Shown here piece after piece: positions 2,692-34,582 of a stretch of 38,183 nt of DNA. Location: positions 1 through 38,183 of the forward strand of contig JAISCX010000010.1 of assembly GCA_031265235.1 (NCBI GenBank). Direction: 5' to 3'. The position numbers and the translations under genes were made by a program. Origin of the DNA: Rickettsiales bacterium (GTDB lineage: Bacteria > Pseudomonadota > Alphaproteobacteria > Rs-D84). Each line of letters starts with the position of its first letter. Position 1 is the first letter of the stretch. A model generated the notes under the pieces. It had not been told where the DNA came from and made no database searches. It saw only the letters and a list, made by a program, of their open reading frames with translations.

Positions 2692-4590
2692 TTATTTCAT
2701 CACATAATGCACTGTGACATTCGGCTTTTTCATGCGGCCGATCAGCGGGCGCAACGCGCCGTTCACTGCTGTCTTTACCGTCATTTCCAGGTTCTTTTGG
2801 TCACGGCGTTCATGCTTTGACAGTCCGTCGATCGCTTTGGTGATGGCCAATTGCACGGATTTTTTCATGACCCCCGTCTGATCGGATTCAAAGATTCCCG
2901 CACTTGACACTTCCGGAACGCCTTTCAAAAATCCTTTCTTGTCCACCGGCAACGTCACAAATACCGCGCCATTCAGCATGACGCTTTTACGCGCCTTGAA
3001 AACCGGGTCATTGTGGTTGTATTCGGTTTCTCCTTCCAGAATGATGCTGCCGGTATGCACGGTTTCCGTTACATACGGCGCTTCGTTCCGGCGCATCGCG
3101 ATGACTTCGCCGTTTTTCACCAGCATCATGTGCTTTGCGCCGCCGCGTTCCATCGCCATTTTTGCATGCAGCATTTCCGACACATATTCGCCGTGCATCG
3201 GAATGATTGTCTGCGGGTGCACCATGTCAAAGAATCGTTCGAATTCCGGGCGCCCGGCATGTCCGTTCGCATGCAGGTTCGGCGTGTCGAAGATAGTGTG
3301 ATAATGCACGCCTTTTTTCGCCAAAGCATTATACAGAAACGATACGTCTTTTTCGCGGCCCGGGATCACGATCGCGCTGAATATCACGGTGTCCGTCGGT
3401 TGCAGTTGCAACTCTTTCACATCATTCTTGCACAGGCGCGTCAGCATGGCGTATTTTTCGCCCTGGGACCCGGTCAGGAATATGACTTGTTTTTCAGCGG
3501 GAAGGTCCTTGATATCCCGATGCAGCAGCAGATCGTCTTTATTCAGATATCCGTATTCGATTCCAATCTCGCGGAATTCGGGCAGCCCCACATACGGCAC
3601 AGCGCGCGAATTGCTGCGTTCTTTGATCGCCGGAACGCGGCCCGCGGCCTTGGCGGCCTCTGCCACCATTTTCAGGCGCGACAAGCTGCGCGAATAACCG
3701 GTGATAATGATGCGCCCGGGCGCTTTTTTGAACAGTTCGGTAAGCGTATCGCGAACTTGAACCTCTGTCGTTTGCACCGGCTGGCGCGCGATTTCGGTTG
3801 AATCGCCGACAACGGCCAGCAATTCCGGGTCTGATCCGATTTCTTTCAAACGCGCATAGTTCGTCATGGGTTCAATAGGATTGTCATCGTTAAATGTCCA
3901 GTCGCCGGTATGCAGCACTTTTCCCTGGGCGGTTTTGATGATGACCATATTTGCCTCTGGCACGGAATGCGACGCGTGGAAAGTTTCGATTTCGAACGGG
4001 CCGACGTTGAATTTGTCGCCGTTGTGATTGAATATGCGGAAATCATCGGGTTTGGTGTTTATGCCGACGCCATTGAAAGTCTTGCGCATGAAATTTTCCA
4101 CAAACCGCGTGCAATATATCGGGGCGCGGAATTTTTCCCATATGTATTTCAGCGCGCCGGTATGGTCTTCATGCCCGTGGGTGATTATGAATCCGACGAC
4201 GTCTTTCTTGTGTTTTTCCAGGAATTTTGTGTCCGGATATTTTGTGTCCGCGCCTTCGAATTCGCCTTCCAAAAATCCCATTCCCGCATCCACCACCAGA
4301 TACTTGCCCTTGTATTTATACACATACATGTTCTGGCCGACGTGTTCCAGTCCGCCCAGGGCAAAGAAATATAAAGTATCGTCGTTCGGATCGACAGAGT
4401 TTATTTTGCTGGTATCGGATTTGATGGCGCCCGCGCCTTTACCCGCGCCGGCATTTTGATGTTTCTTCGCCGGTTTTGTCGCCGCGATCGCGACGGCTTT
4501 GTCGTCATCCATAAAGTCATTTCCGTTGGATAGAAAGGGCAGGTTTCCGATATGATTGTTTTCGTTTTTGTCTTTTTTAAGTTTTACCAT
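2692..4590 (-). CDS. rnj: Ribonuclease J (metallo-beta-lactamase / beta-CASP)
   Basis: RNase J-type ribonuclease: 5'-3' exonuclease and endonuclease acting in mRNA decay and rRNA maturation. The 632-residue protein has the metallo-beta-lactamase motif HGHEDH at 138-143, further zinc ligand regions (HTGDW near 227), a beta-CASP domain (about 270-420) with the ITGYSRS and TGSQGE segments, and an RNase J C-terminal domain. The usual MIPMHGEY motif is present as IIPMHGEY. An N-terminal extension of about 70 low-complexity residues (Lys-, Ala- and Asn-rich) precedes the conserved FALGGLEHVG start; an internal ATG at 4512 would remove part of it. It is separated from the upstream nrnA-like gene by a hairpin-rich 264-bp gap, so it may have its own promoter or be produced by processing. 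Confidence 0.92.
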   Translation of the reverse strand: MVKLKKDKNENNHIGNLPFLSNGNDFMDDDKAVAIAATKPAKKHQNAGAGKGAGAIKSDTSKINSVDPNDDTLYFFALGGLEHVGQNMYVYKYKGKYLVVDAGMGFLEGEFEGADTKYPDTKFLEKHKKDVVGFIITHGHEDHTGALKYIWEKFRAPIYCTRFVENFMRKTFNGVGINTKPDDFRIFNHNGDKFNVGPFEIETFHASHSVPEANMVIIKTAQGKVLHTGDWTFNDDNPIEPMTNYARLKEIGSDPELLAVVGDSTEIARQPVQTTEVQVRDTLTELFKKAPGRIIITGYSRSLSRLKMVAEAAKAAGRVPAIKERSNSRAVPYVGLPEFREIGIEYGYLNKDDLLLHRDIKDLPAEKQVIFLTGSQGEKYAMLTRLCKNDVKELQLQPTDTVIFSAIVIPGREKDVSFLYNALAKKGVHYHTIFDTPNLHANGHAGRPEFERFFDMVHPQTIIPMHGEYVSEMLHAKMAMERGGAKHMMLVKNGEVIAMRRNEAPYVTETVHTGSIILEGETEYNHNDPVFKARKSVMLNGAVFVTLPVDKKGFLKGVPEVSSAGIFESDQTGVMKKSVQLAITKAIDGLSKHERRDQKNLEMTVKTAVNGALRPLIGRMKKPNVTVHYVMK

Positions 4591-4672
4591 TTTTTATTTT
4601 TTCCATTATTTATATTGTCATTCCGTTTGCGGGAATAACGATTATTATTTGCCGCGCATCCGCGCGACGATT

Positions 4673-4756
4673 AATCCCCGAATCTCTGGAAAAATTCATT
4701 GTCAATAAAGAAAGCTTCTTTATCAAAAGTGAATCTGCCAGAGATTGCGGGGGGTT
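4673..4756. repeat. Long nested palindrome between nrnA-like gene and rnj
   Basis: Nested complementary arms are visible: AATCTCTGG (4681-4689) with CCAGAGATT (4738-4746); ATTCA (4694-4698) with TGAAT (4730-4734); ATAAAGAA (4705-4712) with TTCTTTAT (4716-4723). The outer arms extend with AATCCCC (4673-4679) against GGGGTT (4751-4756), one G-U pair. A smaller hairpin, TGCCC/GGGCA, follows at 4759-4772, and the 14-bp palindrome TGTTATTAATAACA lies just beyond. No T-run marks a classical terminator. It may be an mRNA-processing or stabilising structure, or a dispersed palindromic repeat. Confidence 0.6.
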
Positions 4757-4854
4757 GTTGCCCATTCGGGCACGTGTTGTTATTAATAACACTTAGGCAT
4801 AAATTGCCCTTTGCCGGCGATTATACGATATTAAAAAAGAATTATCAATAGAAA

Positions 4855-5805
4855 TTATAACACTTCTGCAAATGCGGCCAGAATCATTTGTTTCGCTGTT
4901 TCCAAATCTGTATTCAGACGCACCGCCGCTGCGTTCAGATGTCCGCCGCCGCCCAGCTTTGCCGCGATTTTATTCACGTCCATCCTGCGGCTGCGCAATG
5001 ATATATGAATGATGTTTTCCATGGGTTCTTTCAATAATGCCACATATTCCACAGTGTCAATCGTGCGCAACCATTCCATTGCATGTCCGCCCTTGCCATC
5101 CAGCATTGCATAATCCGCCAGGGGCACGGTTGATATCGCCAGCCGGTTATCAAACAAGAATTCTGCATTCATCATGATTTTTGCGTTTGCCAGAATATTA
5201 TCCTTGGTTGTTATCGCCAGGTTGTCTTCGATATCGCGCGGCCGCGCGCCATGCCGCATACAATCGGCGGCCGCGTCAAACGCGGATGGATCGTCGACCC
5301 AACTGAAGCGGCCCGTATCGCTGGAAATCGCGGTATACAGGCAATCTGCGGCAATCGTGTTGATTTTCCAATTTGCGGCGTGCGCAATTTCCAAAATAAC
5401 TTCCGCGGTGGAGTTTACGATTTTATGAATATTTAGATTCGCGATATCGGGTGACGTTTGATGATGATCGATTTTGATAGAATCACGTGCACGGTTGAAT
5501 ACGGCCATGGATTCATCGCCGGTATTTCCGCCGGATGTATCCACCATTATCGCCAAATCCGGGATAAAATCATCCGCGATGTCTTCGGCTTTTTTTACCG
5601 CTTCGTATCGTCCGGGCATCCAGTCAAGAAATTTCGGAATTTTACCGGTGTGAATTATCGGCGCGGTTTTTCCAAAATTATCGCGAATCAGTTCGACCAG
5701 CCCCAGTGACGACCCCAAAGCATCGCCATCTGGATTATTGTGCGTGATGATGACAATATTTTCCGCCGTACTTAATTTTTTAATTAAAGATTCAATATTA
5801 TTCAT
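4855..5805 (-). CDS. DHH/DHHA1 phosphoesterase, NrnA-like (oligoribonuclease / pAp phosphatase)
   Basis: DHH-family phosphoesterase, 316 residues, the size of NrnA, which degrades 2-5 nt RNA fragments and dephosphorylates 3',5'-pAp in the cytoplasm. Visible motifs are HNNPDGDALGSS (22-33, motif I), MVDTSGG (motif II), IDHHQTS (the DHH motif), TGRFSW (motif IV) and the C-terminal DHHA1 signature GGGGHLNAAA near residue 286. The start is set by a good ribosome binding site, AAAGGA, 7 nt before the ATG. It follows alaS by 23 nt and precedes rnj, so the products of RNase J digestion and the enzyme for their final breakdown are encoded side by side. RecJ is excluded by length. Confidence 0.85.
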   Translation of the reverse strand: MNNIESLIKKLSTAENIVIITHNNPDGDALGSSLGLVELIRDNFGKTAPIIHTGKIPKFLDWMPGRYEAVKKAEDIADDFIPDLAIMVDTSGGNTGDESMAVFNRARDSIKIDHHQTSPDIANLNIHKIVNSTAEVILEIAHAANWKINTIAADCLYTAISSDTGRFSWVDDPSAFDAAADCMRHGARPRDIEDNLAITTKDNILANAKIMMNAEFLFDNRLAISTVPLADYAMLDGKGGHAMEWLRTIDTVEYVALLKEPMENIIHISLRSRRMDVNKIAAKLGGGGHLNAAAVRLNTDLETAKQMILAAFAEVL

Positions 5806-10815: not shown

Positions 10816-10891
10816 GGAGTTGTAGCTCAGTTGGTAGAGCAAGTGACTTTTAATCACTGGGTCCAGGGTTCGAATCCCTGCAACTCCACCA
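10816..10891 (+). tRNA. tRNA-Lys (anticodon UUU)
   Basis: A complete cloverleaf: acceptor GGAGTTG/CAACTCC, D stem GCTC/GAGC, anticodon stem AGTGA/TCACT with loop CTTTTAA (anticodon TTT), T stem CAGGG/CCCTG with loop TTCGAAT, discriminator A and an encoded CCA. Its last 18 bases recur at 11047-11064, so it has probably served as an integration target. Confidence 0.97.
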
Positions 10892-10895
10892 GGAT

Positions 10896-10926
10896 ATATG
10901 GCCGCCGCAAGGCGGTCATATTTTTT
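10896..10926 (+). terminator. Rho-independent terminator after tRNA-Lys
   Basis: CCGCC-GCAA-GGCGG core extended outward by ATATG/CATAT pairing, followed by a T-run. Another GNRA-loop terminator. Confidence 0.85.
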
Positions 10927-11046
10927 GTTGGTGCTGTTGGGATTTGAACCCGATAGAGCCGCGAAGCGGCGAGGGGTTCGCGTACGAGTTGGCGTGCGCA
11001 AACAAGGCGCATGCCTTACGAGTGCTAGCGAGCAGCGCGAGCAGCC

Positions 11047-11064
11047 ATCCCTGCAACTCCACCA
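11047..11064 (+). repeat. Direct repeat of the tRNA-Lys 3' end (att-like scar)
   Basis: ATCCCTGCAACTCCACCA is identical to the last 18 bases of tRNA-Lys (10874-10891), including the CCA. The two copies lie 173 bp apart, start to start. Such duplications arise when an integrase uses a tRNA 3' end as attB. The DNA between the copies contains the tRNA terminator, a GCCGC/GCGGC hairpin, and, on the minus strand at about 10930-10955, a T-arm-like GGGTTCAAATCCC followed by a shortened acceptor end, which looks like a decayed tRNA fragment. Confidence 0.75.
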
Positions 11065-11478: not shown

Positions 11479-11799
11479 ATGGTTATTCACCATGAATCTA
11501 TAATTGATAAAGACTCTTTCGATTTAATTAAGTCTGGTGCGAAACACCTCAAATTTTACCTAGATGATTCTAAGCGTCAAGGCTTGAAATCTGGCAATCT
11601 TATTAAATATACAAACAAAGAAACTGCTGAAACTATGATTATTTCTGTAAAACAGATAATAAAGGCGGAAAGTTCAGATATTCTTGCTAGAAAGTTAGGT
11701 CTTGATAGAGAACAGGTTATATACATAAACAGCTGGTTTTCAGCAAAAGACCAAGAAAAACATGGATTATTGGCCGTTCAGATAGAAAAGGAAGCATAA
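11479..11799 (+). CDS. ASCH/PUA-like domain protein
   Basis: A 106-residue single-domain protein. Its layout matches the ASCH fold: an N-terminal segment FDLIKSGAKHLKFYLDDSKR resembling the G-K-x-x-E-x-R signature, then LKSGNLIKYTN (the GDxI-type strand), a strand-rich middle with ISVKQII, and a helix SSDILARKLGL. ASCH proteins bind RNA or modified nucleosides; YqfB, for example, hydrolyses N4-acetylcytidine. The canonical Glu-Arg pair is not clearly conserved here, so the activity is open. The ribosome binding site AAAGGTGA lies about 5 nt before the ATG. Its stop overlaps the start of the ITPase-like gene as TAATG, showing translational coupling. Confidence 0.65.
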   Translation: MVIHHESIIDKDSFDLIKSGAKHLKFYLDDSKRQGLKSGNLIKYTNKETAETMIISVKQIIKAESSDILARKLGLDREQVIYINSWFSAKDQEKHGLLAVQIEKEA

Positions 11800-12392
11800 T
11801 GAAAGTACATTTTATTACATCAAATACAGGAAAGGCAAAGACGCTGCAAAGCTATTTTGAATCCAAGGGACGTTCTGATATCGAAATTGTACCGACCAAT
11901 CTGGACTTAATAGAACCGCAGGCAGATACGGTTGCCGAAGTGTCATTATTCAAGGCGCGTCAGGCATTTGAACAGTTAAGAGAGCCCGTGTTGGTAGAAG
12001 ATGGTGGTTTTGCTATTGAGGTTTTAAAAGGCTTTCCGGGTGTTTATACAAAGTATTCAAATAAGACGCTTGGTGCCGATGGTATCATAAAACTGATGGA
12101 CGGAGTATCTAATAGGAACGCAAAGTTTGTAAGCACGGCTACCTATATAGATGTTAACGGGAAAGAACATCAATTTCATCGCAAAGGCGGCGAAGTATCA
12201 ATCGCAGAAACGGTTAGCTCTGTGGATTCGCCGCTTGCTTGGTCTGTCCTGTGGAAAATAGTTTGGATTGAAAGATTTCAAAAGGTAATGGCCGAAATGA
12301 CCGAAGAAGAAGTTAATCAATATTATTCTGGTGGGAAATCAGAGGGAAGCCTGAATATATTCGTGGATTGGTTTATGGAGAACAACAGCTAA
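11799..12392 (+). CDS. Non-canonical purine NTP pyrophosphatase (Ham1/RdgB family)
   Basis: ITPase-fold enzyme, 197 residues, expected to hydrolyse deaminated or otherwise altered purine nucleoside triphosphates to monophosphates and so keep them out of nucleic acids. Motifs: TSNTGKAK at 7-14 (triphosphate binding), VEDGGF at 66-71 with the catalytic acidic pair, and GFPGVYTKYSN at 78-88. The canonical C-terminal motif (SHR-type) is not obvious: the tail reads YYSGGKSEGSLNIFVDWF, so substrate range may differ from housekeeping RdgB. It is coupled by TAATG overlaps to both neighbours. Its AT-rich codon use and location in the island suggest an accessory, transferred copy. Confidence 0.85.
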   Translation: MKVHFITSNTGKAKTLQSYFESKGRSDIEIVPTNLDLIEPQADTVAEVSLFKARQAFEQLREPVLVEDGGFAIEVLKGFPGVYTKYSNKTLGADGIIKLMDGVSNRNAKFVSTATYIDVNGKEHQFHRKGGEVSIAETVSSVDSPLAWSVLWKIVWIERFQKVMAEMTEEEVNQYYSGGKSEGSLNIFVDWFMENNS

Positions 12393-12622
12393 TGAATCCT
12401 TGGTTAATATTCATCATAGGCACTTCTTGTAGCGGTAAGAGCTCTTTTATAAGGGCAATAAATACTGATGATTATATTTGCTTGGACGATGCAAAACCTT
12501 TGTATAGAAAACCAGCAGATTTCTGGTGTGTTCGCATGATTAATAAGGTAAATTTAACCAATAAAATGCACAATTTTCCCTGTAAATACCCTGTATTTAT
12601 GAATTCAGGTATGGGAAATTAG
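12392..12622 (+). CDS. Truncated P-loop kinase-like protein (probable remnant)
   Basis: The 76-residue product opens with a Walker A loop GTSCSGKSS (9-17) directly after a short hydrophobic strand, as in small nucleotide or antibiotic kinases of the chloramphenicol phosphotransferase/AAA_33 type, and continues with a DDYICLDDAKPL segment. Such kinases usually run to about 170-200 residues; here the homologous part fades after about 50 residues and a stop follows, with a terminator 33 bp later. The gene is therefore probably a 3'-truncated remnant, although the start is intact and coupled by TAATG to the ITPase-like gene. Confidence 0.55.
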   Translation: MNPWLIFIIGTSCSGKSSFIRAINTDDYICLDDAKPLYRKPADFWCVRMINKVNLTNKMHNFPCKYPVFMNSGMGN

Positions 12623-12734: not shown

Positions 12735-12763
12735 AGAGCAAATGACATTTAGTCATTTGCTCT
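12735..12763. promoter_or_regulatory. Perfect 12-bp palindrome upstream of the 12810 promoter (candidate operator)
   Basis: AGAGCAAATGAC (12735-12746) and GTCATTTGCTCT (12752-12763) are perfect reverse complements with a 5-nt spacer. The palindrome ends 12 bp before the -35 box of the next gene. There is no T-run, so a protein-binding site is more likely than a terminator. Confidence 0.55.
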
Positions 12764-12775
12764 AAGTGATTTATG

Positions 12776-12803
12776 TTGACAAAAGCTATAATTGTATTAT
12801 GAT
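12776..12803 (+). promoter_or_regulatory. Promoter of the 12810 gene
   Basis: Consensus TTGACA (12776-12781), 16 nt spacer, TATGAT (12798-12803). Only 6 nt separate the -10 box from the ATG at 12810, predicting a leaderless mRNA. Confidence 0.6.
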
Positions 12804-12809
12804 TGTGCC

Positions 12810-13952
12810 ATGAAAACGGTTTATGATATTATAAAAAAACAAAATGGCGAGACATTCGCCAGAACCATTCGAAATTTTGATAATGGTATTTTTGATGTTG
12901 AAAATTTACCAGAAATTGTGAGATTTGCAGGTCGTGATGCAAAACCGCTATTGCCATATTTGAATTCCTTAAAAGATATAAAAGACATCAATGAGAAGTC
13001 TACCAAGAATCCGTTCGATTTATTAGATAAAGCGGGATACAATGCTTTTCATGCCGATACATTAAAAAAGCAAAATTCAATTAAAATATATTTTGAAAAT
13101 GGCGAAGAAATTTGTACATTTAACGACCCAACAAGATTTGAGCGTTATTATATTATAAATGCTGTAAAACATGATGTTGAAACGATTTTACGAAAAAACT
13201 TTATAAATCCATCACGTGAAGATGCATACGGAACGTCCGTGATATCAATACAAATTATAAAAACTGGCGGGTCTATATCAATAAAAAACAGATATAACCA
13301 TATTGTCCAGTCTTGTGATAATACATTTAATAGCAATCCTGATAATATATATCCCGGATTATCAGCCGCAATCAAAGGTTATTTTAATGTAGATTTTACA
13401 ACTGGGAATGTCAGGCCTCCGGATGGTTTTTTGCTGATAGGCGACCAGATTGTTAGATATAACCATGAAATAAACGCCACATATTATGGCGATGGATTTG
13501 TCGTCAAAGATTTTAAAATCATCAAATTGAATCCCGGCCATCAAATGGTGTTGGATTATTTTATATTTGATACAAAAGAAGAAGATGACGAAAAACGAAT
13601 AAAACAGATTGATAAAGATTTTAAAGATAGTTTTCTTGATATATTCAAAGCAGAAATAAAAGATGAAAAGACATCTGTTGCGATAAATACAGCAGGGAAT
13701 AAATGTATCAAAGTTGGCAATCGTATAATAGTAGAGACAAAAAATAGTCAGATCATATCCGCATCGTTTGAAAAATCTAAAATGGTTGGTCCAAATTTTT
13801 TATGTCGTAACGAGGCAATGATCGATTTGTCGATCCCAAATGTTTCAAATATATTAGGTTCATTAAACATACTAGAAAACAACGGATTTATGGCGGGTAA
13901 ATTATATTATGACCATGCAATGAAGTTACGCAAAGAATGTCAGGGGAAATAA
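12810..13952 (+). CDS. Uncharacterised protein, first gene of a two-gene island module
   Basis: The 380-residue protein has no signal peptide or membrane helix. I do not know a named domain in it. The N-terminal part contains LPEIVRFAGRDAKPLLPYL (about 32-50) and LLDKAGYNAFHADTLKKQN (about 70-88); the middle contains a strand-rich block with GTSVISIQI and SISIKNRYNH, then PDNIYPGLSAAIKGYFNVDF. From memory this middle block recurs in uncharacterised proteins of gut bacteria of other phyla, which would fit horizontal transfer; unverified. The charged segment EEDDEKRIKQIDKDFKD (about 250-266) separates it from a C-terminal beta-rich region ending with FMAGKLYYDHAMKLRKE. The start at 12810 is chosen from the promoter position; a TTG 18 nt upstream is unlikely. 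The stop overlaps the next ATG as TAATG. Confidence 0.75.
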   Translation: MKTVYDIIKKQNGETFARTIRNFDNGIFDVENLPEIVRFAGRDAKPLLPYLNSLKDIKDINEKSTKNPFDLLDKAGYNAFHADTLKKQNSIKIYFENGEEICTFNDPTRFERYYIINAVKHDVETILRKNFINPSREDAYGTSVISIQIIKTGGSISIKNRYNHIVQSCDNTFNSNPDNIYPGLSAAIKGYFNVDFTTGNVRPPDGFLLIGDQIVRYNHEINATYYGDGFVVKDFKIIKLNPGHQMVLDYFIFDTKEEDDEKRIKQIDKDFKDSFLDIFKAEIKDEKTSVAINTAGNKCIKVGNRIIVETKNSQIISASFEKSKMVGPNFLCRNEAMIDLSIPNVSNILGSLNILENNGFMAGKLYYDHAMKLRKECQGK

Positions 13953-15478
13953 TGATTACTGACTTTGATCATTTATATAAAAAGACCAAACTGTTGCCTA
14001 TTGAAAAGGCAAGAGAGTTGTTAAAGTTGAATCTTAAAGGTGGAATAGATAAGGGTGCCGTATTTATGGCGTCTGACGATATGTTATGTCGTAAGAAGTA
14101 TTGGGCTTTTGTTGACCGCATGAAACTTATGATGACTACAATGTATATGAAATTGCTATCCACCGGCAATCATCCACAACCAGAATCAGATTTCTTGGAA
14201 GAATTTGATGGCATACCGCAATTTTTATGGCCAGAAATAATACATGAATGTTTAGAACCAAAAGATATTGTATATATTGTCAAACATCATCATAAGACTG
14301 TTGCATCCATTATTGACTATCTGATTGCTGCATTGCCTGAACAATCCCAAGCACAGGCAGTTCAGGATGCTATATCTGTGATAAAACCAGAATATGATGG
14401 ATTTGATGCTTTTTGGTATTCCGTATCAAAAGAAGCGCGCGAAGTATTAAGAAAAGCATATCCAAATTGTAAACAGGCAAATGATATTGTTGAAAAGTTA
14501 AAAAATGTTGACCCTTTGCAACTAAACGATGTGATCCAATCTGAATTGAAGAATATAAAACCTGCTGATTGCGATGATATTATTGAATTGGCATTATTAA
14601 AATATTCACATGGTATTGATAATGAAAGAAAATATAATTACGAAACAAAATCTTCTGAACTCAGCAAACGCGAACAAACAATACAGACATTTTTCAATAC
14701 ACAAGAATACGTTATCGGCAATGCTTCGAATGAACGCCTGGAATCTTTATTGTGTCAAATGACAATGATAACGCACCCGCATGCCATAACTGGTGCGAAA
14801 CAGTATTTCGCTGATAAGTTCCCCGTAAATAGAAACAGCAACATTTTATACGATGCGCCAAGAGTAATTTCAAAAATCGCTACTGATACAAATACAAAGT
14901 CTGACGATTATAATGATTTGAAAGAAGTATTTTCGTTTGTTGCAAAGAATGTTCCGCAAAATGTAAACGTTGCTGAATTACTATTATTATTCCGCATGGC
15001 GCTTGCGTCACATGATTTCTCAGATTCATTGGTGCATAAATCAATACCAGAAGCATTGTCGTGGCAGAAAGAAGTATCAAGTGAGTTCTTTTGGCAATTT
15101 AGATGCGATTTTGGACAATCTGTTCTTGGAATTATATCGCCAAATACAAAAGATGTTAAGAATTATGGATGTATCGAAAATTCGCCGGATATTATAGATA
15201 TCTCGAATAAAAGCCCAGCAGCAGTATTTGCGGCATTATATAATTATGCATGGCCACAGGGGATGGGATTTTTACATTATCATGGTATGCCCATGTTTGA
15301 ACATGATGCGCAATATATACTTGAACGCGGTCATGGGACCCAAGAATATTGTATGGGGCGCGCCATGAAAATACGAATGGACAATAAACAAAAAACATTA
15401 AATGTCGATGGTTACAATTTTAACAATGGTCGTGATATTGCACAAATGGCAATCAGGACCTGTCAAAATATAAAATAA
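13952..15478 (+). CDS. Uncharacterised protein, second gene of a two-gene island module
   Basis: A 508-residue, mostly helical, soluble protein of unknown function. The N-terminal third has PIEKARELLKLNLKGGIDKG and HHHKTVASIIDYLIAALPE; the middle is rich in predicted helices with charged residues. The C-terminal 60 residues, from PMFEHDAQYIL through EYCMGRAMKIRMD to YNFNNGRDIAQMAIR, resemble a small domain I associate from memory with short phage and island proteins (pattern: DY-x-GR-x-MK ... YD-x-x-NG ... A-x-x-x-I); unverified. The start at 13952 overlaps the preceding stop as TAATG and is preceded by AGGGGAAA. An in-frame ATG at 13937 would overlap the upstream gene further. The close coupling suggests that the two products act together. 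Confidence 0.75.
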   Translation: MITDFDHLYKKTKLLPIEKARELLKLNLKGGIDKGAVFMASDDMLCRKKYWAFVDRMKLMMTTMYMKLLSTGNHPQPESDFLEEFDGIPQFLWPEIIHECLEPKDIVYIVKHHHKTVASIIDYLIAALPEQSQAQAVQDAISVIKPEYDGFDAFWYSVSKEAREVLRKAYPNCKQANDIVEKLKNVDPLQLNDVIQSELKNIKPADCDDIIELALLKYSHGIDNERKYNYETKSSELSKREQTIQTFFNTQEYVIGNASNERLESLLCQMTMITHPHAITGAKQYFADKFPVNRNSNILYDAPRVISKIATDTNTKSDDYNDLKEVFSFVAKNVPQNVNVAELLLLFRMALASHDFSDSLVHKSIPEALSWQKEVSSEFFWQFRCDFGQSVLGIISPNTKDVKNYGCIENSPDIIDISNKSPAAVFAALYNYAWPQGMGFLHYHGMPMFEHDAQYILERGHGTQEYCMGRAMKIRMDNKQKTLNVDGYNFNNGRDIAQMAIRTCQNIK

Positions 15479-15947: not shown

Positions 15948-16523
15948 TTAGTCAAACTTTGCCAGATGGTTTTTTATTTTATCATATGTCTGCGCTTCAT
16001 CAAGATCAGACACATCGATAGACAGTTTGTTAGGATGTTGAATATCGATAAGTTTGTTTGTTTTTAATACATTGTCCATTATTTCCGGCGATGCGATCTT
16101 TCCGCGGTCTTCCCTTGCTTTTGTCTGGCATCTGGATTTTAGCACTTCCGGTTTTGCCAAAAGCTCTATCGGTATGAATTCCGCCTTTATATCGGATGCC
16201 AGTTTTATAAATTGTTGCAATATTTCCCCGTCTTGTTCGAAAAGGGCATTCGTCAGAAGATATCTGGTGTGGTTCGTTTTCGGATACAATTGCCCAAGTA
16301 TTTCGAAAAAGTCGCTGCGAATTTTTGCAACGCCGCGGGTATATGTATCCCAATCTTCCGGCCCCAGTTCCACAAAAGGACGCACAAAGTCGCGGAAATA
16401 ATGGTTATCCATTAACAGCGCGCCTTCGGATTGCAGTCTTTTAGCCATGGTAAGTTTTCCCGAAGAAGGCATGCCGTATAATAAAATTAGTTGATTAGAC
16501 TTCATTGCAAGCCCTTTGATCAT
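15948..16523 (-). CDS. P-loop ATPase/kinase of the AAA_33 type
   Basis: A 191-residue P-loop protein with Walker A GMPSSGKLT early in the chain (about residues 17-25 from the 16523 start), then LMDNHYFRDFVRPF and the Arg-rich region LKSRCQTKAREDRGK that fits the lid of small kinases. It resembles AAA_33/zeta-toxin-like nucleotide- or metabolite-kinases; the substrate is unknown. The start at 16523 overlaps the acyl-CoA ligase stop as ATGA; an alternative ATG at 16505 has a better ribosome binding site (AAAGGG, 7 nt before). Last gene of the minus-strand operon. Confidence 0.7.
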   Translation of the reverse strand: MIKGLAMKSNQLILLYGMPSSGKLTMAKRLQSEGALLMDNHYFRDFVRPFVELGPEDWDTYTRGVAKIRSDFFEILGQLYPKTNHTRYLLTNALFEQDGEILQQFIKLASDIKAEFIPIELLAKPEVLKSRCQTKAREDRGKIASPEIMDNVLKTNKLIDIQHPNKLSIDVSDLDEAQTYDKIKNHLAKFD

Positions 16524-18106
16524 TCCGATCTTTCCGGGAATTCGCCGCGGTCCAGCATTGCCGCTATCTCGTGATGCTTGATTTTCTTTGCGGATGTCTG
16601 GGGCAGCTCTTCTTCGGTTATCGCGAAATGATTAACCCATTTGTATGGTGCGATCATCAGGTTAGACGCCTTGGTCAGCAATTTGATTTTTGAAAGCGAT
16701 GTTCCCGGTTTTACTTGGAATACCCCGTATGCGACGGCCTTTCCCTTGATTGTGCGTTCCAGAACCGCGGCAGAAAGAATTTCGTCGTTCATCATGTATA
16801 GTTCTTCCAATTCATCCGGGTAAACGTTCTTGCCGCTGTCCAGGATTATGACCTGTTTTTTTCGGCCTTTGATTATCAGACGGTTTTTTGCGCCAAATTT
16901 CCCCAAGTCCCCCGTTTTGAACCATCCGTCTTCAAAAGATTCCGCATTCGCGGCGTCATTGTTTACATATCCGTTCATAACCAGATTTCCGCGAACCCAG
17001 ACTTCGCCAATGCCGCGCTTGTCGGGATTATGAATCTTGATTTCATTCCCCGGCAGCGGCCCCGCATGGTGCGTTGACCCGTCGTCCATTTTGAATTTAA
17101 AGTTAAAGTTTCCGGGCCCGGTTGTTTCAGTCAGCCCATAGCAGTCGCCGACGACAAATCCCAATCTTTCGAAAAACTTCCGCACCCTGGGCTTTAAGGT
17201 TGCGCCGGCGGATACCAGAACTTTGCATCGTCCGCCGAATACTTCGTGAATCGGTTTTGTCACTTTGCGGACCAGCACGCCCAGTCCGACCACGCGCAGA
17301 AATCCGCGCATGCCGATTATGATTTTCATCGCCATGTGTTTTTTTTGCACCTTTGCGTTTTCGATGATTTTTTTATAGAATCCTTCCAGAACGCGCGGCA
17401 CCGCCGGTATGACTTCCGGACTGTATTGTTTAAAGTCGGCCATGAATTCGCGCGGATTAAGCACAGGCTGCAGCAACAGCCGGCACTTCATCGTCAGCGG
17501 CGCGATTATATTGATCACCACGCCGTATATGTGATACAGCGGCAGAAACCCGTAAAAAGTGTATCCAGGCCGTATGGCGGGCGCATATTTCAAAGCGCCT
17601 TGGCCCAGCGATACGATGTTGCTGTGCGTCAAACCCACGACCTTTGGATTTCCCGTTGACCCGGATGTAAAGGACAGCATGGCCAGATCGGAACTTTCGA
17701 CTTCCGCGGCGGCGAATTCTTTTTCATCCGTCGCGTCTGTTGTTTCTATATCGAACATTTCCGGACCGTTTTCTACAAAATATGATTTCTGGGCCAGCGC
17801 AAGCTTGCAATCCGTATGCCGCATCATGTTAAGATGTTCAGTTGCGGACAGTCCGGTGTCCAGCATTAAAACCTTTGCCCCCAGCGATGTAATCGCAAAG
17901 TAAGATTTTATGAATTCAGGCGTGTTGCCGGAAAGTATCGCGACAGTGTCGCCCTTTTTTATCTTGAACTTTTGCGTCAGCAAAACGGCGCGTTTTTTTA
18001 CTTTGGACAGCAGATCCGCATAAGTTTCGTTCTGTCTGACAAAGAATACATGGTCCTTGTTTTCCGAACAAACCTTGCGCAGCATGTCGTATATGTTTTT
18101 TATCAT
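16520..18106 (-). CDS. Acyl-CoA synthetase (AMP-forming, FadD-like)
   Basis: ANL-superfamily adenylating enzyme of 528 residues that activates a carboxylic acid, most likely a fatty acid, to the acyl-adenylate and then the CoA thioester. Motifs: the phosphate-binding loop TSGSTGNPK (147-155), FLPLYHIYG, the AMP-binding core YGLTETTGPG (about 321-330), GWFKTGDLG (about 395-403) with the ribose-binding Asp, and the hinge/lysine region KGRKKQVIILDSGKNVYPDELE. The catalytic C-terminal Lys is plausibly in the TSAKKIKH segment. The short form, without membrane helices, suits long-chain acyl-CoA ligases. A good ribosome binding site (AAAGGA) precedes the ATG. The substrate cannot be deduced from the context. 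Confidence 0.88.
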   Translation of the reverse strand: MIKNIYDMLRKVCSENKDHVFFVRQNETYADLLSKVKKRAVLLTQKFKIKKGDTVAILSGNTPEFIKSYFAITSLGAKVLMLDTGLSATEHLNMMRHTDCKLALAQKSYFVENGPEMFDIETTDATDEKEFAAAEVESSDLAMLSFTSGSTGNPKVVGLTHSNIVSLGQGALKYAPAIRPGYTFYGFLPLYHIYGVVINIIAPLTMKCRLLLQPVLNPREFMADFKQYSPEVIPAVPRVLEGFYKKIIENAKVQKKHMAMKIIIGMRGFLRVVGLGVLVRKVTKPIHEVFGGRCKVLVSAGATLKPRVRKFFERLGFVVGDCYGLTETTGPGNFNFKFKMDDGSTHHAGPLPGNEIKIHNPDKRGIGEVWVRGNLVMNGYVNNDAANAESFEDGWFKTGDLGKFGAKNRLIIKGRKKQVIILDSGKNVYPDELEELYMMNDEILSAAVLERTIKGKAVAYGVFQVKPGTSLSKIKLLTKASNLMIAPYKWVNHFAITEEELPQTSAKKIKHHEIAAMLDRGEFPERSE

Positions 18107-34247: not shown

Positions 34248-34570
34248 GCAGACGGGCGGGCTATAGCTTTGTAAGAAGAGGAAAGTCCGGACATCATGGG
34301 ACAGCATAGCGGCTAATGACCGCGCGGGGCGACCCGACGACCAGTGCCACAGAGACGAGCCGGTTCAGACCGGAGTGAAACGCGGTAAACTCTATGCGAT
34401 GCAACTCCAAATAGGCCAATCGCGGACAGGAATGTCCAGGTGTGTTCCGCACCGAGAAAGGCGGGTAGGAGGCTTGACGTTCGCAGCAATGCGAAACGCA
34501 GATTAATTATAGCCGGTGCGGCAACCTAAAAAGGCCCGCGCCACAGAATCCGGCTTACAGCCCGTCTGAT
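34248..34570 (+). ncRNA. rnpB: RNase P RNA (catalytic subunit, bacterial class A)
   Basis: Ribozyme that removes 5' leaders from pre-tRNAs. The ends pair as the P1 stem: CAGACGGGC (34249-34257) with GCCCGTCTG (34560-34568). Conserved region I, GAGGAAAGTCCGGACATC, lies near 34277-34294 and conserved region V, CACAGAATCCGGCTTAC, near 34542-34558, forming the P4 core together. The GGTTCAGACCGGAGTGAAACGC-like P10-P12 region and the AGGAGGCTT segment near 34468 fit a type A RNA. The length of about 320 nt is on the short side. It is followed by its own terminator. Confidence 0.95.
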
Positions 34571-34582
34571 ATTCAAATAAAA

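What the first reader, a model, noticed from the sequence alone, without database searches (positions are those of the whole stretch)
12810..15478. Candidate undescribed two-gene module
Two large soluble proteins of unknown function (380 and 508 residues) are translationally coupled (TAATG), driven by one promoter with an operator-like palindrome, and sit in a tRNA-associated AT-rich island. The first contains a block I remember from uncharacterised gut-bacterial proteins of other phyla; the second ends in a small domain reminiscent of phage or island proteins. This is the strongest candidate in the window for an unrecognised system (defence, toxin-like or inter-bacterial).
Basis: partly seen in the sequence, partly recalled or inferred. 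Interest (0 to 1): 0.65.

Follow-up and report, generated by a model that had tools for sequence, protein, structure and literature searches.

The report
Conserved two-gene pair, undescribed proteins
A tiny gut bacterium that depends on other cells carries two tightly linked genes for undescribed proteins, one built on a domain that phages also place in giant proteins next to their virion genes and the other ending in a common phage mini-domain; the same pair occurs in another genus with the gene order swapped, so the two very probably work together, possibly as a two-part effector.

Summary
The module is real. P1 (12810-13949, 380 aa) and P2 (13952-15475, 508 aa) are coupled by TAATG behind a TTGACA-16-TATGAT promoter, in a 32-35% GC stretch (flanks 48-50%) beyond a tRNA-Lys whose 3' end is duplicated. 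A same-genus genome has other genes there. One other genome (different genus) has both genes adjacent, in the opposite order, again joined by TAATG and behind the same promoter layout: strong evidence of joint function.

P1 is a short member of a large family absent from Pfam, NCBIfam, PHROGs and PADLOC: a ~250-aa domain (RxDxYGTS...NRYNH) normally followed by BspA-type leucine-rich repeats, found in 57 of 183 genomes of its family, often in tandem, and inside ~3,600-aa tailed-phage proteins. AlphaFold folds it confidently (pLDDT 92) with no PDB or BFVD match. Both P2-linked P1s lack the repeat array and share a unique C-terminal helix. P2 is mostly helical and ends in a mini-domain common in phages (54 viral contigs).

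Best guess (30%): a two-subunit effector in which P2 replaces the repeats as recognition part. Relatives have basic C-termini and VirB4, compatible with type IV secretion. Defence or toxin-immunity roles are untested; nothing specifically supports defence. Biochemical function unknown.

The parts
12810..13952 (+). P1 gene (380 aa + stop): NRYNH-family domain (~1-258), one LRR-like unit (~300-348), C-terminal helix (359-377)
13952..15478 (+). P2 gene (508 aa + stop): all-helical region (1-~410) plus phage-type small domain
15194..15475 (+). P2 C-terminal small domain (residues 415-508), homologous to stand-alone ~90-aa phage proteins
   Evidence: profile E 5e-17 to the Dulem virus 39 protein
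13950..13954 (+). TAATG stop/start overlap; the same overlap joins the pair in G174 with gene order reversed
12776..12803 (+). sigma-70-like promoter TTGACA-16-TATGAT, 6 nt before the ATG (leaderless layout; same spacing before the first gene of the pair in G174)
12735..12763 (.). perfect 12-bp-arm inverted repeat (hairpin or operator-like), unique in the genome
12652..12681 (+). terminator-like hairpin with T-run closing the upstream genes
10816..10891 (+). tRNA-Lys(TTT), upstream border of the variable interval
11047..11064 (+). 18-bp direct repeat of the tRNA-Lys 3' end (att-like scar)
16520..18106 (-). AMP-binding (acyl-CoA ligase-like) gene, downstream border; syntenic in the same-genus genome G177, where other genes lie between it and tRNA-Lys

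Best explanation
P1 and P2 are the two subunits of one machine, made together by translational coupling. P1 supplies a conserved effector-type domain (the NRYNH domain). In most relatives this domain is guided by a C-terminal leucine-rich-repeat array on the same polypeptide; here the array is lost and the separate helical protein P2, with its phage-type end domain, takes the recognition role, docking on the C-terminal helix found only in P2-linked P1s. Most likely the complex acts in, or is delivered into, another cell on which this host-dependent bacterium relies. Shown here: the genes, coupling, recurrence of the pair with swapped order, P1 family membership, loss of repeats, unique tail, and phage relationship of both parts. 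Inferred: physical complex, P2 as recognition part, delivery and target. Unknown: the biochemical activity.
For: P2 occurs in two genera, each time next to a short P1 and joined by TAATG although gene order is opposite; P2 was found nowhere else at full length among 201 order-level and 385 class-level genomes or viral contigs. Both P2-linked P1s lack the repeat array (no LRR_5 hit, while 6 of 8 sampled relatives have one) and share a tail motif absent from all other fetched members. The NRYNH domain plus LRR_5 also lies in ~3,560-3,740-aa phage proteins, resembling a protein class proposed to be injected with phage DNA (PMC5512222). P1-type genes are concentrated in these reduced-genome lineages (57/183 in the family, against 3 of 385 class-level genomes, two of those from the same family). 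The order is described as obligate symbiont/parasite (PMC12306168). Family C-termini are basic: mean charge +2.7 over the last 20 residues against -0.07 internally and +0.9 for neighbouring genes' C-termini; VirB4 is in 19 of 20 relatives.
Against: Only two instances of the pair. In the P1 tree the two paired P1s are not sisters, though a joint clade is not rejected (p-AU 0.19). No fold match, so no enzymatic clue. Basic C-termini are only compatible with type IV export. P2's helical region is modelled with low confidence (pLDDT 66). No interaction was modelled or measured.
Confidence: 0.3

Rival explanations
1. Toxin-immunity or toxin-antitoxin pair: P1 is toxic to the cell or to neighbours and P2 binds and neutralises it.
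For: Bicistronic, coupled, accessory, AT-rich, absent from the same-genus genome; order can be swapped, as in some toxin-antitoxin families (general knowledge); invariant polar residues (R136, D138, R161, N163, H164) suggest an active site.
Against: Most P1-family genes stand alone with no conserved partner, so the domain is not generally toxic to its producer; P2 (508 aa) is larger than typical immunity proteins; no PADLOC or Pfam toxin hit.
Confidence: 0.2
2. Anti-phage defence: P2's phage-like domain is a decoy or sensor of a phage DNA-metabolism protein, P1 the effector.
For: P2's C-terminal domain is a widespread phage protein, lying between the single-strand-binding protein and recombination genes in Dulem virus 39; P1's domain occurs in phage giant proteins; variable tRNA-flanked site.
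Against: No PADLOC hit for either protein or the neighbours tested, beyond one weak match (E 0.028) of the neighbouring kinase-like ORF; no recognised defence genes nearby; in G174 the pair sits between housekeeping genes.
Confidence: 0.15
3. Mobile-element or phage-derived cargo without a fixed role for the host, kept briefly.
For: Phage relatives of both proteins; AT-rich; absent from the same-genus genome; att-like scar at tRNA-Lys.
Against: Both genes intact at ~45-49% identity across genera with coupling and promoter layout preserved: long selection. In G174 the pair has nearly native GC (43-48% against ~48%).
Confidence: 0.15
4. Intracellular housekeeping or scaffold complex unrelated to conflict or delivery.
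For: No signal peptide-like N-termini in the family; G174 location beside purL and a carbonic-anhydrase-like gene.
Against: Patchy distribution, multicopy tandem arrays and low GC of family genes are unlike housekeeping genes.
Confidence: 0.1

Closest known systems
BspA-type leucine-rich-repeat proteins (Pfam LRR_5, PF13306)
   Same: P1's long relatives carry LRR_5 arrays (E down to 1e-44); P1 keeps about one repeat-like unit.
   Different: BspA-type proteins are usually secreted surface proteins; P1's family has an undescribed N-terminal domain and no signal peptide, and P1 itself has no LRR_5 hit.
Phage polyvalent (multi-domain, virion-delivered) proteins (Iyer et al. 2017, PMC5512222)
   Same: The NRYNH domain plus LRR_5 lies in ~3,560-3,740-aa phage proteins that also contain HExxH-type motifs and follow late, probably structural genes.
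   Different: P1 and P2 are separate, small, chromosomal genes; that paper does not mention LRR or BspA.
Stand-alone ~90-aa phage protein family (ALYN..PQGMGFLHY...FDYLKGRVMKV...YDRDNG); example Dulem virus 39 XCD07496.1, unnamed
   Same: P2 residues 415-505 align over the full length (profile E 5e-17).
   Different: In P2 it is fused to ~410 helical residues and the FDYLKGR and DRDNG motifs have diverged.
Type IV secretion effectors of Rickettsiales-like bacteria
   Same: Host-dependent lineage, VirB4 present, basic C-termini.
   Different: No translocation tested; no homology to any named effector.

Membership tests
BspA-like LRR proteins | LRR_5 repeat array above Pfam cutoff | tested here: not met
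   P1 and its G174 homologue: no hit; 6 of 8 other family members: hit
NRYNH-domain family (defined here; unnamed) | N-terminal ~250-aa domain with RxDxYGTS and NRYNH motifs | tested here: met
   Alignments A1 and A4; hits in 57 of 183 genomes
Phage polyvalent proteins | Several disparate enzymatic domains in one polypeptide encoded by a phage or conjugative element | tested here: not met
   P1 and P2 are short chromosomal genes; only the P1 domain is shared
Known anti-phage defence systems | Hit to a PADLOC model | tested here: not met
Known anti-phage defence systems | Protection against phage | not testable with these tools
   needs phage challenge
Toxin-antitoxin / toxin-immunity | Toxicity of one gene relieved by the other | not testable with these tools
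   needs expression assay
Toxin-antitoxin / toxin-immunity | Two-gene, co-translated, recurrent pair | tested here: met
Type IV secretion effector | Secretion-system gene in the genome | tested here: met
   VirB4 family PF03135 in G000 (E 7e-12) and 19 of 20 relatives; other components not searched
Type IV secretion effector | Positively charged C-terminal tail | tested here: inconclusive
   Family tails strongly basic; P1 +3 and P2 +2 over the last 20 residues, modest
Type IV secretion effector | Translocation into another cell | not testable with these tools
   needs assay

The most novel reading that the evidence does not exclude
A new two-component effector system of cell-dependent bacteria, built on a domain of unknown fold that phages place in giant, probably virion-delivered proteins: the NRYNH domain is a general activity used by both phages and symbiotic bacteria inside other cells, and P2 is a swappable targeting subunit that replaced the leucine-rich repeats.
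Probability: 0.2. Interest if true: 0.75.

Novelty: new variant of a known kind. Interest (0 to 1): 0.5.

Why it matters
It exposes a large domain family, absent from the protein-family and structure libraries searched, that is shared by obligately host-dependent gut Alphaproteobacteria and tailed phages, with a confident predicted fold unlike any found in PDB or the viral structure library. If it is a delivered effector, it would give a handle on how uncultured reduced-genome bacteria (order Rs-D84) interact with the cells they depend on, which is an open question. The natural gene-order swap with coupling retained makes P1-P2 a well-posed test case for complex formation.

Tried and rejected
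P2 as a fusion partner in phages: viral proteins L152-L154 carry the NRYNH domain plus a C-terminal region, but it is unrelated to P2 (hhalign probability 1%). P2 helical region in wider genomes: the class-level G341 hit (E 0.002, with a stop codon) looked spurious; G413 matched only the small domain. P2 in IMG/VR and plasmids: no full-length relative. P1 in phage and plasmid records by tblastn: none, although profile patterns found it in IMG/VR. Conserved non-family neighbours of P1-family genes: none beyond scattered housekeeping genes. Palindrome as a repeated element: unique in the genome; its similarity to the tRNA-Lys anticodon arm (18 of 21) was judged probably coincidental. Regular expressions used to classify repeat types were too strict and are not used as evidence. 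Fold searches for P2 gave only generic helical-repeat matches. Literature searches for this family together with Enterousia returned nothing.

Full report
OBSERVATION. The window is contig C38 of a 947-kb, 99%-complete genome. The region is 32-35% GC against 48-50% in the flanks. tRNA-Lys has an 18-bp duplicate of its 3' end 155 bp downstream.

GENOMIC SITE. In a genome of the same genus (G177, contig C51) the same syntenic borders (alanyl-tRNA synthetase, HU, tRNA-Lys ... acyl-CoA-ligase-like gene) enclose different cargo: a 212-aa ORF, a 79-aa ORF (DUF378-like by eye) and a 218-aa ORF. P1-P2 therefore occupies a variable interval next to an att-scarred tRNA gene.

THE PAIR. P2 has one full-length relative in the 201 order-level genomes searched (G174, matching record JAITCH010000013.1, 'Rickettsiales bacterium isolate Nl494_bin11'), 45% identical over 506 residues. 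There it lies directly upstream of a 49%-identical P1: the gene order is swapped, yet the junction is again TAATG (AGATAATGAAA) and the first gene again starts 6 nt after a TTGACA-16-TATTAT promoter. In G174 the pair sits between a carbonic-anhydrase-like gene and purL, far from a tRNA, at nearly native GC. Independent placements with conserved coupling in both orders are hard to explain unless the two products work together. No P2 relative was found in 385 class-level genomes (beyond the small domain), plasmids or IMG/VR.

P1 FAMILY. P1 has no hit above cutoff in Pfam, PHROGs, NCBIfam or PADLOC. It belongs to a large family: 57 of 183 genomes in the taxonomic family, with up to five matches per genome; 347 confirmed relatives in a scan of GTDB contigs; 15 of 57 loci hold two or more family members within about 11 kb. 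Outside the family it is rare: 3 of 385 class-level genomes, two of them from the same family, the third a 1.5-Mb genome with five matches, and 2 of 398 phylum-level genomes, both from the same family. Invariant positions across 71 sequences including phage ones: K9, G13, G76, E99, C102, R136, D138, Y140, S143, I158, R161, Y162, N163, H164, L184. Most members continue into BspA-type repeats (LRR_5 above cutoff in 6 of 8 sampled; the other two have a different 'LDFSGV' repeat seen by eye). P1 and its G174 partner-linked homologue are short, have no LRR_5 hit, and end in a shared helix motif (NGFxxxKxYxDxAxxLR) that no other fetched member has. AlphaFold gives P1 pLDDT 91.7 and pTM 0.82; Foldseek finds nothing at E <= 0.001 in PDB or BFVD: a probably new fold. 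In a maximum-likelihood tree of the N-terminal domain the two P2-linked P1s are not joined, but a joint clade is not rejected (p-AU 0.19), so it stays open whether P2 was recruited once or twice.

PHAGE LINKS. The NRYNH domain, again followed by LRR_5 repeats, lies inside ~3,560-3,740-aa proteins on IMG/VR contigs, encoded after late, probably structural genes (identified by eye). Such giant proteins carry HExxH-type motifs and resemble 'polyvalent' proteins proposed to be injected with phage DNA (PMC5512222); I did not test injection or virion packaging. A second viral type (~560 aa; L152-L154) has the domain without LRR. P2's last ~90 residues match a stand-alone phage protein family: tblastn E 4e-6 to a Dulem virus 39 gene lying between the single-strand-binding protein and RecT genes, profile E 5e-17, and 54 IMG/VR loci. 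Both halves of the module are thus related to phage proteins, but different ones.

MECHANISM (inference). I propose that P1 is the active part and P2 the recognition part of a two-subunit effector, with P2 standing in for the lost repeats. Delivery to another cell is suggested by the lifestyle, by the phage parallel, by VirB4 in 19 of 20 relatives, by the absence of signal-peptide-like N-termini and by the basic C-termini of the family (+2.7 against -0.07 internally and +0.9 in neighbour genes; Mann-Whitney on tail excess p = 6e-13 after dereplication; related sequences are not independent). P1's own tail (+3) and P2's (+2) are only mildly basic. Each of these is compatible evidence, not proof. 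The biochemical activity is unknown.

RIVALS. Toxin-immunity, anti-phage defence, mobile cargo and intracellular scaffold remain possible; simple expression, phage-challenge and co-purification tests separate them.

VERDICT. Observation confirmed; the interpretation as an unrecognised module is supported, the defence flavour is not. Interest 0.5: a new domain family with a probably new fold and a well-conserved two-gene derivative, but only two instances of the pair and no activity known.

Noticed in passing
window 10816-11064: tRNA-Lys(TTT) 3' end (18 bp, ATCCCTGCAACTCCACCA) repeated at 11047-11064; the short stretch between also contains a minus-strand sequence resembling a tRNA 3' end.
   Followed up: partly
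window 11799-12622: Ham1-family (inosine/dITP pyrophosphatase-like) gene (Pfam E 1.8e-22) followed by what looks like a truncated P-loop kinase fragment (12368-12622) in the same AT-rich island.
   Followed up: no
L056 (G116:C4) 3096-5633 -: Repeat (BspA-like LRR) protein whose open frame continues into a MoxR-like AAA ATPase domain (seen by eye).
   Followed up: no
L103, L123, L127, L112, L116: Tandem arrays of three to five P1-family LRR genes with diverging repeats, suggestive of rapid diversification.
   Followed up: partly
L163-L216 (viral contigs): Widespread unnamed ~90-aa phage protein family (ALYN..PQGMGFLHY...FDYLKGRVMKV...YDRDNG); in several contigs near DNA-metabolism genes or DNA methyltransferases by eye.
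   Followed up: partly
window 12776-12810 and L033 7259-7295: Both pairs have a leaderless-looking promoter layout (-10 box 6 nt before the ATG); may be common in this lineage.
   Followed up: no
window 34248-34573: RNase P RNA (class A) on the + strand.
   Followed up: no
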